NCBI GenBank assembly: GCA_037951105.1
Contig: JBAMJV010010103.1
Location: 1 to 64,000, forward strand
Origin: Echinarachnius parma
Taxonomy: Eukaryota > Echinodermata > Echinoidea > Clypeasteroida > Echinarachniidae
Direction: 5' to 3'
DNA length: 64,000 nucleotides
In this document: piece after piece, positions 7,366-11,500 of the stretch
Numbering within the stretch: position 1 is the first letter of the stretch
How the letters are laid out: every line of letters begins with the position of its first letter
Position numbers and translations under genes: made by a program
The notes under the pieces: generated by a model
What the model saw: only the letters and a program-made list of their open reading frames with translations
Databases searched by the model: none
Told to the model about the DNA's origin: nothing

Positions 7366-7605
7366 GGGATCAATTTTATAGTTTGATTTCAACAGTGCCT
7401 AGAAACTTGAATTAAGCAATATATAAATGCTACATATTAGTATCATCATGAATATAGTTCCATGTTTCATTGTATTACTTGTCATTTGTCGCAATATAAA
7501 AGAACCTGCTAGGTTCGAAAGCTTGGCTGTATTTGAAAAGTTACATATTATTATCATTATTACAGCAATTAACCTTCACAGTCTTGCCGTTTTCTTTATT
7601 ATTTT

Positions 7606-7672
7606 GTTCAATCCGTGTTTGTTTCAGGACTTGTCTTCCGGAGGAGCTGTCATCTCCCTGGAGTATGTATCT
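7606..7672 (-). pseudogene. partial duplicate of NRAMP exon 17, copy D
   Basis: Minus strand reads YSREMTAPPEDKS then a stop. It aligns to exon 17's [11 protein letters not shown]; about two bases are missing relative to the other copies, so the frame ends early. Flanks ('GGCTTAAATTGTACCCAAAG' on plus) match copy C. Lies downstream of the functional stop, so probably 3' UTR or intergenic. Confidence 0.65.
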
Positions 7673-8198
7673 GTGTGCTGGCTTAAATTGTACCCAAAGA
7701 CTATAACGTTAGTTTCAACTTTCAACAGTGCATGGAAACTTGTATTAAGCACTATTTCTACCATCTTTTTGTTTAAAGTGATCCATTAACTTTATATTTT
7801 TCTTCAGTCTTCAATTTTTTCTTCAATTATATACCAATATCATTGGGAGATTCTTGAGAATGATATGTGCGATTTTCATAGAAATAAAATAATGTATTTA
7901 TGTCTGATTTCATCCTGATCGTTTGCGTGGAGTACCTGAAATCCGATACTATGGAGAATTTAGTCTCCAAATTCGGATACTCTTGACTACGGTCTAAAGC
8001 ATGCATAGACGCTTTAGAATTCAACCTTCATAATTCTTCATAATTAGGGAGACATTTTTTAGAATAAAAGTCCATTTAATTCTTCTGTACAAAGTACAAG
8101 GGAAGTGTGTAAGCGCCAAGTAATCTTGGTTGAATTTTCACAAAGTTGATGGATCACTTTAATGTTCAGTCTTGCCTAGTTCTTTAATACGGTAATTG

Positions 8199-8262
8199 GT
8201 TCAATCCGTGTGTGTTTCAGGGCTTGTGTCATCCGGAGGAGCTGTCATCTCTCTGGAGTATC
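8199..8262 (-). pseudogene. partial duplicate of NRAMP exon 17, copy C
   Basis: Minus strand reads [19 protein letters not shown] and the same TGA as exon 17. The tail frame is intact, but no acceptor in the required phase 0 is seen, so it is unlikely to act as a terminal exon from exon 16. Confidence 0.7.
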
Positions 8263-8433
8263 TGTGTGCTGGCTTAAATTGTACCCAAAGAACAAAACAT
8301 CAGTTTCAACTTTCAACAGTACATGGAAACTTGTATTAAGCACTATATTAAAGCTACCTACCATTATAAATACACGAGTTCTTATAGAATTTGTTCAATG
8401 TTCACACTCTTGCCAATTTGTTTAATAATTTGT

Positions 8434-8580
8434 TCAATCCGTGTGTGTTTCAGGGCTTGTGTCATCCAAAGGAGCCGTCGTCTCTCTGGAGGAAAATGTT
8501 CCAGTCATGTGAACGCTGTCATCGTTGACGTCGTCCAAGTGATCAAGGCTGTAGGACGTTGCTGGAGCATTGAAAAACCT
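8434..8580 (-). CDS. Slc11a: NRAMP exon 17 (C-terminal tail and stop)
   Basis: A long pyrimidine tract and CTCCAG precede 8580. The frame reads [20 protein letters not shown], then a Ser/Thr/Asp-rich tail ending TSPETHTD and TGA at 8434-8436. Phase 0 agrees with exons 15 and 16. Fragments of this exon recur at 8199-8262, 7606-7672 and weakly at 8660-8755, supporting a real exon that has been duplicated. Confidence 0.75.
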   Translation of the reverse strand, partial: RFFNAPATSYSLDHLDDVNDDSVHMTGTFSSRETTAPLDDTSPETHTD

Positions 8581-11500
8581 CTGGAGCAGGCACAGAAAGG
8601 GAAAACAAATGGAAAGAACATTGGACAAAAATGTACAAACCAGGGCTTGATATTTAAAAAAGAAAGAGAGAGAACATCTCTTCGGAGGAGAATATGCCAG
8701 ACAGGTGAACACTGTCATTGTGACATCATAGTCAAAGTAATCAAGGGACGTCCTAAGAGTATAACAAATCTCTGAAAATGAATGTACAATCCTGGGCCCC
8801 GTCGCAGAAAGAGATATAATCGATTGTAAGTAACAATTAATTGTAAGTCGGACAATTTGCGCGTTTCAACCAATCAGAATTGCGCATTTAGAACACATGA
8901 TCTGACTTACAATCAATTGTATCTCTTTCTGCAACGGGGCCCTGGACACACTTTTGTTTTTGTAAAAGATACAATATCTTAAGAAGAGAATAAACCAAAT
9001 ATGTGATTGAGAACCCATGAAAAAGAAATGCTTCTGAAAAAGAATTTCTAAAAATCTAGTGACAAATCAAAAAATTTAAATTAAATGAAAGTTTGCTCAC
9101 CTGTATTGATGGTGGATACTGAAGTCCAATCTTCTGAAAGAAGTAGGCACTCTGAGATCAAGAAATAGGGATGAAGTGAATTAATTATTCAAATAATTAT
9201 TAACTAGTGTGACACATTTATAGTTCCAGTTCATTTGTTTAAAATGTGAAAAGAGAATTTTAAAAGGCAAACTAGATCATGGCAATTATTTTTGTTCAAA
9301 CAAAGAACTGTTGTACAATTAAAATATGTTTGTTTGCTTTCTCATTCTTATACATGTGGTAATGTTTGTACCATACTGAACATTTCATTTCTGTTTACTT
9401 ATTTTATATCATTATTGTACTTTATTTTGTGAATAAAAAGGCAAAATTAGCAAATTAATATGTTATTGTTTTCACAGACTTTTTATAATTTAGTCTCTTA
9501 TTCATTTTTTTCTTAAAATAACAATAAATATTGAAACAGGAGAAGTCGGGAGATGAGTTAACTTTTAACCCGATCACTACGGGGACCGAGAATTCTCGGT
9601 TCCCGATGCGCCTACTCATATACGGGAACCGAGATTTCTCGGTTCCGAGAAAGGGCTATATTAATTGCATAAACATACATGTATGCATCTTGTAAGTACA
9701 ATATTATTTAGCTGAATACAAAGATTGAACCCTTGGCTACATGTATATCAAGTCTCCCAGACTCTAGTTGCGTGGTTATTGTTTTATTACAATTTTATCA
9801 TGGTAATACACAAGTCTACTTTCAGGATATTTGTATACAAACCCATGCAAGCCACTTCACAGAAATTGCAGAGATTTTCACTTCGCTGAGCCTGTACTAT
9901 GCATATCGATCGCCTCTATTGTGTGTACTACTTAACCAGCGAACTCACGCTAGGTTGAATAGAAGCGAATACAATGCCATGGTCAACCAGATATCGATCG
10001 GTTCTTTTGTGCGCTCCCAATGCGGTAATTCGACCGGTCCGTTAAAAAATCTCGTATATAGCTATTGAAGCAGTATATCAAAAGGCGTGGTAAACGGGTT
10101 AATACCTAATATGTATTAGGAAGTCAAGTGTTTTGAGTAAGTCCAATTTAAAACAGATTATTCATATTTCTCTTTGTGCAAGTCAAGATATACATTTTTG
10201 CAAAACAAATATTGGAGAGCTACATGTAATAAGAAGGGCTCGGCAAACTTTTTATACTAACTAAATACATTATGAATGTGAAATAGAGAATTAAGACGGC
10301 ACCTTCTAACAAATGCATGGCCCAAGGTTGGAGAGGGTTGGCAGAAATACTATGACAAATAAGATGTTGGTTTCTGTTACATCCAATGCAAGTCAAGTTA
10401 CACATTTATTTGCCTCATCAATTATGAAATTCTAAAAAGAGAAAATTACTGTACTTACTAAATATGCAATGAAAGTGAAGTAGAGAAGTAAGATGACAGC
10501 TTCTAACAGATACATGGCCCAGTGGTTGGGCAGCGTTGGCAGGAAGACGATGACAAAATAAATATTGATTCCTATGACTCCTACTGCGAGCAGGGAGCAC
10601 ATGATCACTGCCAATCTGAAACGGCAACAAGAAAGAAATAAGTCAACTTTTACATCCCATTCAACACTTGATCTAACTCCTCACAAAAAGTTTTTTGAGC
10701 CACCTAATTCTCATTTATTTGATACCTGTTTGTATCCTGTTATGCATCAGTGGATTAGCTAATTACCTTCTCTCTAAAAATGACACCACTTTTTAAACAA
10801 TCGCTAGCTTCATGGCCGAGTACCTCCCCTTTGTTTACAGGTGGGTCTCAAACAGAATGTGACAAAATTTTCCATAAATGCAGTATACTCGTTCATTCAT
10901 TCACCCATTCATTGATTCACCCTCAGATAGCAACAGAATCAAAAGGATTAAGCACAGATAATTGTCAATTTGGCACATTCTGTTTGAGACCCACCTGTAA
11001 ACAAACTTTCCAAACTTTTTGTGAGGAGTTAGAAAAAAGGGCATTTTCAACAGACCCAAGCCTGAGTAATTTTGAGACCCGTTCTGAATTGTGTAAAGAA
11101 GATTTATCTGGGTATAATTTGTTGGGTTGACCTAACTAGTTAATACAAAATTATATCTGAAAAAGAACAAAATACAACAAAATAACAATACAAAATTCTA
11201 GCAGATAAGTGTCAAATTTGAAAGAGCATACAATTTTACTGACAGAATGAACTTTATTTGATCACAATCGGTTCAGAAATGGCTGAAATATCAATGAATA
11301 TATCCGATCAGAATAAATATGGGATCCCACATTTATTTGATGATTTAAGAAAGAAAAATGTGTCTCTGTCTTTCAGTTTGGGTATTAAGTCGCAATGGGG
11401 GTTTAGTACATAGAGCACCAAAATCATAAAAAATTGTCTTTGGCTGAAAATTTCAACTTTACGGAATTTGATACTTACATGTGTCATCTACATTCTCTGA

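What the first reader, a model, noticed from the sequence alone, without database searches (positions are those of the whole stretch)
7380..8760. The C-terminal-tail exon of the NRAMP gene is copied several times around the true 3' end
Seen: exon 17 (8434-8580) has same-strand partial copies at 8199-8262 (tail frame intact, same stop), 7606-7672 (frame broken) and 8660-8755 (diverged), with shared flanking DNA at offsets of 593 and 233 bp. Inference: successive local duplications, the one just downstream still reading [19 protein letters not shown]. This could give alternative 3' ends with different tails; in vertebrate DMT1, alternative 3' exons set trafficking and iron response (established).
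Basis: partly seen in the sequence, partly recalled or inferred. Interest (0 to 1): 0.7.

Follow-up and report, generated by a model that had tools for sequence, protein, structure and literature searches.

The report
Duplicated tail exons of iron transporter
In a marine animal's iron-transporter gene the last exon has been copied in a row; one chromosome copy seems to keep two intact versions with different protein tails, while the copy in this window has fused them into one, and the other nearby copies look like dead remnants.

Summary
The gene is an NRAMP2/DMT homologue on the minus strand. The copies downstream of exon 17 (8199-8258, 7606-7665) have no in-phase, pyrimidine-rich acceptor leading into the tail frame, and 7606 is frame-broken. 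I read them as relics. The 593-bp offset is a ~207-bp unit plus a ~386-bp MITE-like insert.

The key evidence lies outside the window. Contig C12795 of the same assembly, probably the other haplotype, is collinear with window 3-22275. It has two intact last exons in tandem, each with its own acceptor and in frame from exon 16: 17a (...SVPMSGPFFSKKRLSLFRVNTTC*) and 17b (...[27 protein letters not shown]). They differ by dS 0.97 and dN 0.11 over 29 codon pairs, so selection probably kept both coding.

The window's exon 17 is a recent in-frame fusion: acceptor and first half from 17a, tail from 17b, crossover within 14 shared bases at 8543-8556. Alternative tails are plausible, but by upstream duplicates on the other haplotype. 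There is no transcript evidence. Known kinds combined; moderate interest.

The parts
10459..10615 (-).
9101..9151 (-). Exon 16, [17 protein letters not shown], phase 0 at both ends, donor CAG|GTGAGC
8660..8771 (-). Copy D, a decayed upstream unit of the tail exon with an acceptor (TTTTCAG|AGA); in phase it gives 18 residues then stop
8434..8580 (-). Exon 17 of the window allele, a fusion of 17a (acceptor and first half) and 17b (tail)
8543..8556 (-). 14-bp stretch shared by 17a and 17b in which the crossover lies
   Evidence: diagnostic sites 8557 (17a) and 8542 (17b)
8421..8426 (-). ATTAAA poly(A)-like signal just after the stop
8199..8258 (-). Copy C: tail end only, frame open, no fitting acceptor
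7606..7665 (-). Copy B: tail end only, frame broken
7773..8162 (.). TTAA-flanked MITE-like insert between B and C, present on both contigs; parts also at 15791-15904 and 52547-52617
8311..8367 (.). One of three copies of a flanking element (others 7720-7776 and 7387-7443) belonging to the downstream array

Best explanation
The 3' end of an NRAMP2/DMT gene, probably of an echinoderm, went through repeated short tandem duplications of its last exon. Upstream units D, 17a and 17b (period 189 bp on contig C12795) each carry an acceptor. 17a and 17b stayed coding for a long time and offer two cytoplasmic tails that share RFF[NQ][10 protein letters not shown] and then diverge: basic KKRLSLFRVNTTC in a, acidic [17 protein letters not shown] in b. 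Inferred mechanism: the exon 16 donor joins either the 17a or the 17b acceptor, and the poly(A) signal after 17b serves both, so tail choice is acceptor choice. The window carries a recent derived allele in which an in-frame 183-bp deletion fused 17a to 17b, leaving tail b only. Copies C and B come from duplication of the tail end plus 3' flank and are non-coding relics. Shown: the array, open frames, acceptor-like sites, fusion breakpoint, constraint. Inferred: real splicing to both exons, an effect on trafficking, and C12795 being an allele. Confidence is about 0.9 for the array and fusion and about 0.5 for working tail choice; the figure given is for the whole.
For: Copies and spacings. C12795 collinear with window 3-22275: 22 of 29 megablast rows in order, 3 more between array copies, 4 dispersed. 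Two intact exons with pyrimidine-rich acceptors (0.81 and 0.94), both in frame. 17a against 17b: 10 synonymous and 7 nonsynonymous changes over 29 codon pairs, dN/dS 0.11; so few nonsynonymous in 3000 simulations with P 0.0003 if both drifted, 0.014 if one drifted at 1 and the other at 0.15, 0.60 if both at 0.15. Window matches 17a at 27 of 29 differing sites above 8541 and 17b at 47 of 48 at or below. Haplotypes differ at 14 of 1951 bases around the array, against dS 0.97 between 17a and 17b, so the two-exon state is older than the fusion. First poly(A)-like signal after 17a is the one after 17b.
Against: No RNA evidence of any kind. The constraint test rests on 17 changes and could be shaped by gene conversion; it leaves out the unalignable ends of the tails, and the last 8 aligned codons are only weakly constrained (0.28). 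Two sites go against the clean breakpoint (8566, 8523). The 5' exons of the gene have no second copy in the assembly. Copy C resembles 17b more in the tail (53 of 57) than just downstream (21 of 33), P 0.001; C against B likewise (P 0.01), A against B not (P 0.38): this is not what a plain relic predicts.
Confidence: 0.6

Rival explanations
1. One reading: the downstream copies C (and B) serve as alternative 3' ends with different tails.
For: C keeps the tail frame and stop, an ATTAAA follows it (8188), and its tail is more alike to 17b than its flank is (53 of 57 against 21 of 33).
Against: No acceptor passing the filter stands before C in the window; sites ahead of it on C12795 do not lead into the tail frame. 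An in-phase AAG|CC site exists by eye but has A at -3 and failed the filter. B is frame-broken.
Confidence: 0.08
2. Only 17b (or the fused exon) is used; 17a is a former exon that kept its frame by recent loss of use, and everything else is neutral turnover of short tandem duplications.
For: Such duplications are common in this sequence: 19 same-strand pairs within 1500 bases in the window, including decayed copies of exon 15 and of the TM1 exon. The second half of 17a is weakly constrained.
Against: Few nonsynonymous changes if one copy had drifted throughout (P 0.014), and a strong acceptor at 17a. A recent loss of use would not be visible to this test.
Confidence: 0.3
3. C12795 is not an allele but a separate duplicated locus, so the window gene is not polymorphic and the fusion separates paralogues.
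For: Identity varies from 78 to 98% across collinear rows, and the 5' exons of the gene occur once only. A control stretch at window 60500-62500 also showed no full-length second copy.
Against: C12795 is collinear in series with two contigs: with C10082 up to window base 3, and beyond that, in the two stretches searched, with C1188 at 98%, as expected if it spans the join of two contigs of the other haplotype. Its gene part ends at the contig end, not at an internal break. Six NRAMP exons searched for on it are open. The second NRAMP gene is also on two similar contigs.
Confidence: 0.1

Closest known systems
Vertebrate DMT1/SLC11A2 C-terminal isoforms (+IRE and -IRE)
   Same: Same transporter family; different last residues of the cytoplasmic C-terminus by alternative 3' splicing; in mammals 25 or 18 unique residues and different location in the cell (passages of PMC4458610 and PMC3224662). 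A Y-x-L-x-x-like stretch (YSLDH) is present in both tails here; that motif of the vertebrate -IRE tail is recalled, no paper with it was found.
   Different: Here the alternative exons are duplicates of one another. No IRE was found (whole window at gathering level; 5000-9200 at E up to 10; C12795 not scanned).
Sea bass slc11a2-beta tails
   Same: Two C-termini from one NRAMP gene in a non-mammal (passages of PMC3103463).
   Different: There the tails come from an alternative donor in exon 15 and a further exon 16, not from duplicated exons.
Tandem exon duplications with mutually exclusive use, including terminal exons
   Same: Tandem copies with adjoining intron, similar length, own acceptors; such duplications and mutually exclusive terminal exons are described (passages of PMC9013439; abstract of PMC6071210).
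   Different: Here one haplotype has two copies and the other an in-frame fusion; exclusive use is not shown.
Starfish DMT and DMTRP genes (Acanthaster planci)
   Same: Two DMT-like genes in an echinoderm, 16 and 17 exons by cDNA (PMC8041893, section 6 read). This genome also holds two NRAMP genes.
   Different: The terms isoform and splic do not occur in that paper's main text; its tail exon could not be compared here.

Membership tests
NRAMP2/DMT (SLC11A2-like) transporter | Sequence match along the membrane domain | tested here: met
   Joined exon translations match human NRAMP2 (9f6n) E 1.2e-171; 20 of 20 listed PDB sequences carry NRAMP, MntH or divalent metal transporter names
NRAMP2/DMT (SLC11A2-like) transporter | DPGN in TM1 and MPH in TM6 (motifs named in PMC8041893) | tested here: met
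   YLDPGNIES and [10 protein letters not shown] in the translation
Vertebrate-type DMT1 tail isoforms | Two different C-termini from one gene by 3' splicing | tested here: inconclusive
   Two in-frame last exons with acceptors on C12795, one on the window; no RNA
Vertebrate-type DMT1 tail isoforms | IRE in the 3' UTR of one form | tested here: not met
   No IRE family among matches; C12795 not scanned
Tandemly duplicated alternative (mutually exclusive) terminal exons | Tandem homologous exons with adjoining intron | tested here: met
   D, 17a, 17b, period 189 bp, 70% over 256 columns
Tandemly duplicated alternative (mutually exclusive) terminal exons | Copies keep reading frame and splice sites | tested here: met
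   17a and 17b on C12795; not D, C or B
Tandemly duplicated alternative (mutually exclusive) terminal exons | One and only one copy used per transcript | not testable with these tools

The most novel reading that the evidence does not exclude
A natural two-tail versus one-tail polymorphism in an iron transporter: one haplotype can switch between a basic and an acidic cytoplasmic tail on the same YSLDH core by choosing between tandem duplicate last exons, and the other has lost the switch through a recent in-frame fusion. This would be the DMT1 tail-switch principle reached independently by exon duplication, with the loss-of-switch allele in the same animal.
Probability: 0.4. Interest if true: 0.6.

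Novelty: new member of a known kind. Interest (0 to 1): 0.4.

Why it matters
Alternative tails decide where DMT1 works in mammalian cells. If this invertebrate gene reached tail choice by duplicating its last exon, it would be a separate route to the same kind of control, and the fused allele in the same animal would be a natural comparison of the gene with and without the choice. It also shows how keeping both haplotypes in an assembly can reveal exon gain and loss that a single window hides.

Tried and rejected
Alternative ends through copies C and B: judged unlikely for want of a fitting acceptor and, in B, a broken frame. Copy D as a coding exon: in phase it gives 18 residues and a stop; an acceptor two bases further (AGAG|ATT) would keep a longer frame but has no support; left open. 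IRE: none. A control for the usual haplotype difference at window 60500-62500 did not help: its first ~316 bases are a dispersed repeat and no second full-length copy appeared. Two stretches of the gene's 5' part also gave no second copy, which told against the allele reading until the far end of C12795 was found to match contig C1188 at 98%. In one search only 19,800 of 37,093 bases of C12795 were compared; one search compared all of it. The second NRAMP gene gives no outgroup for the tail: the tail protein matches only C10082 and C12795 (5 of 5 matches at E up to 1). Papers: searches (15 of 209 listed; 10 of 4,978 listed) showed no title on tail exons of echinoderm DMT; only listings were seen for most. 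The letters YXLXX or YLLNT occur in none of the papers listed (15 of 38; 10 of 844), so that motif stays recalled. Why copy C is more like 17b in the tail than beside it was not explained. Competing RNA structures for exon choice were not tested.

Full report
Observation. The region 7380-8760 holds a real family of same-strand copies of the end of a minus-strand exon. Self-comparison gives 7579-7755 against 8167-8346 (85%, E 8e-55), 8158-8258 against 8394-8491 (83%, E 6e-25), 7575-7663 against 8401-8491 (82%, E 1.5e-19) and 8677-8746 against 8481-8548 (77%, E 4e-8). I call the copies B (7606-7665), C (8199-8258), A (exon 17, 8434-8580) and D (8660-8771).

The gene. Joined translations of minus-strand exons between about 26 kb and 8.4 kb match human NRAMP2 (PDB 9f6n) at E 1.2e-171 and NRAMP1 at 6e-158; all 20 listed PDB sequences bear names of the family. 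The match ends within exon 16; the tail exon itself matched nothing in the PDB. Searched as protein in the genome, the tail matched only C10082 (the window's contig) and C12795, 5 of 5 matches at E up to 1. Exon 15 (10615-10459) ends in phase 0, exon 16 is 9151-9101, and exon 17 follows in frame. The COX1 gene of the same assembly has four codons that would read Lys: three AAG, and one AAA at a place that is Asn in other animals (recalled). With ATA used where Ile is expected (recalled), this points to the echinoderm mitochondrial code.

The other haplotype. A genome search with the array found a second contig, C12795. Compared whole with the window it gives 29 megablast rows over 80 bases: 22 run in order from window base 3 to 22275 at 78-98% identity, 3 join different copies of the array, and 4 are dispersed repeats; long stretches such as 10664-13828 and 16310-22019 have no match. 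Beyond window base 3 the two stretches of C12795 that were searched match contig C1188 at 98% in the same order, so C12795 seems to bridge two contigs of the opposite haplotype. On it, exon 15, exon 16 and parts of four further NRAMP exons read open. Against the allele reading, the gene's 5' part (window 22900-24700 and 25300-26200) has no second copy. I take C12795 as the other haplotype, unproved.

What C12795 shows. After D it has two last exons in tandem. Exon 17a (5661-5789) reads [42 protein letters not shown]; exon 17b (5844-5990) reads [48 protein letters not shown]. Each has a pyrimidine-rich acceptor (0.81, 0.94) and joins exon 16 in frame. D plus 17a aligns with 17a plus 17b at a 189-bp offset (70% over 256 columns). 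No AATAAA or ATTAAA lies between 17a and 17b; ATTAAA stands at 5998, just after 17b. If 17a is used it would share that site, and the choice would be one of acceptors. That step is inference.

The window allele is a fusion. At aligned sites where 17a and 17b differ (gapped columns left out) the window matches 17a at 27 of 29 sites above 8541 and 17b at 47 of 48 at or below. One of the two misfits, 8542, simply lies beyond the switch; 8566 and 8523 are true misfits. The switch lies within 14 bases common to both exons. A 183-bp deletion from 17a to 17b gives this with frame kept.

Direction and age. 17a and 17b differ at dS 0.97 and dN 0.11 (29 codon pairs; two inserted codons of 17b and the unalignable ends left out). 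In ten chosen blocks around the array the two contigs differ at 14 of 1951 bases, and in three flanking blocks at 77 of 1123; a 46-base block that spans the crossover (5 differences) was left out of these sums. So the two-exon state is far older than the split of the haplotypes here, and the fusion is recent.

Constraint. 7 of 17 changes between 17a and 17b are nonsynonymous. So few occurred in 3000 simulations with P 0.0003 if both drifted, 0.014 if one drifted and one was held at an assumed 0.15, and 0.60 if both were held. The first 21 codons, with YSLDH, give dN/dS 0.06; the last 8 give 0.28. Numbers are small and gene conversion could play a part.

The downstream copies. In window 7300-9180, 12 sites passed an acceptor filter; none lies between 8485 and 8084, and 8084 reads two residues and a stop. 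On C12795 the filter also passes 6814, 6914 and 8036 ahead of C or B, but read in phase none enters the tail frame. B is frame-broken. C and B share 83 of 89 bases upstream that A lacks. Between them sits a TTAA-flanked insert with inverted ends, 7773-8162, which turns about 207 bp into 593. One result does not fit plain relics: tail against downstream flank is 53 of 57 against 21 of 33 for A-C (P 0.001), 53 of 57 against 22 of 31 for C-B (P 0.01), 47 of 55 against 24 of 31 for A-B (P 0.38). C may have been coding for a time, or been converted.

Compared with what is known. Mammalian DMT1 has two C-termini from alternative 3' splicing, and the tail bears on location (passages of PMC4458610 and PMC3224662). 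Sea bass slc11a2-beta makes two tails with an alternative donor (passages of PMC3103463). Tandem exon duplication with mutually exclusive use, terminal exons included, is described (passages of PMC9013439; abstract of PMC6071210). Starfish DMT and DMTRP are described from cDNA with 16 and 17 exons (PMC8041893, section 6). No IRE was found here. The present case combines known elements; the less usual part is two exons on one haplotype and an in-frame fusion on the other.

Verdict. The array and the fusion are close to certain; working tail choice is about even.

Noticed in passing
window 10255-10375 (minus): Exon 15 has a partial copy at an offset of 197 bases (78% over 122), frame broken, present on both contigs.
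   Followed up: partly
window 25709-25839 (minus): The TM1 exon ([14 protein letters not shown]) has a decayed partial copy at an offset of 161 bases (72% over 131).
   Followed up: partly
L027 (C11836:11627-11783 and 11816-11972): The second NRAMP gene has a very recent exon duplication: 157 bases at 98% identity, offset 189; the upstream copy lacks the 3' part with the donor.
   Followed up: partly
both NRAMP genes: Exon duplication offsets cluster near nucleosome size (161, 189, 189, 197, about 207, 233). Exon copies may stand out only because exons stay alignable longer; no test was made.
   Followed up: no
L007: C12795:6077-6903 and 7505-8051: Two TTAA-flanked MITE-like insertions specific to this contig sit within the array, beside a shared one at window 7773-8162.
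   Followed up: partly
window 8790-8946: Foldback repeat, 42-base arms at 90%, in the intron between exon 16 and copy D; a relative lies at 31472-31608.
   Followed up: no
window 523-4140 (plus): Small spliced plus-strand gene (MDSQPAERSSEAIQ..., by eye) that resembles ASDURF-type prefoldin-like proteins (recalled, not searched).
   Followed up: no
window 7579-9568 against C12795: About 2 kb around the array differ ten times less between the contigs (0.7%) than flanking blocks (6.9%), which suggests recent recombination or conversion.
   Followed up: partly
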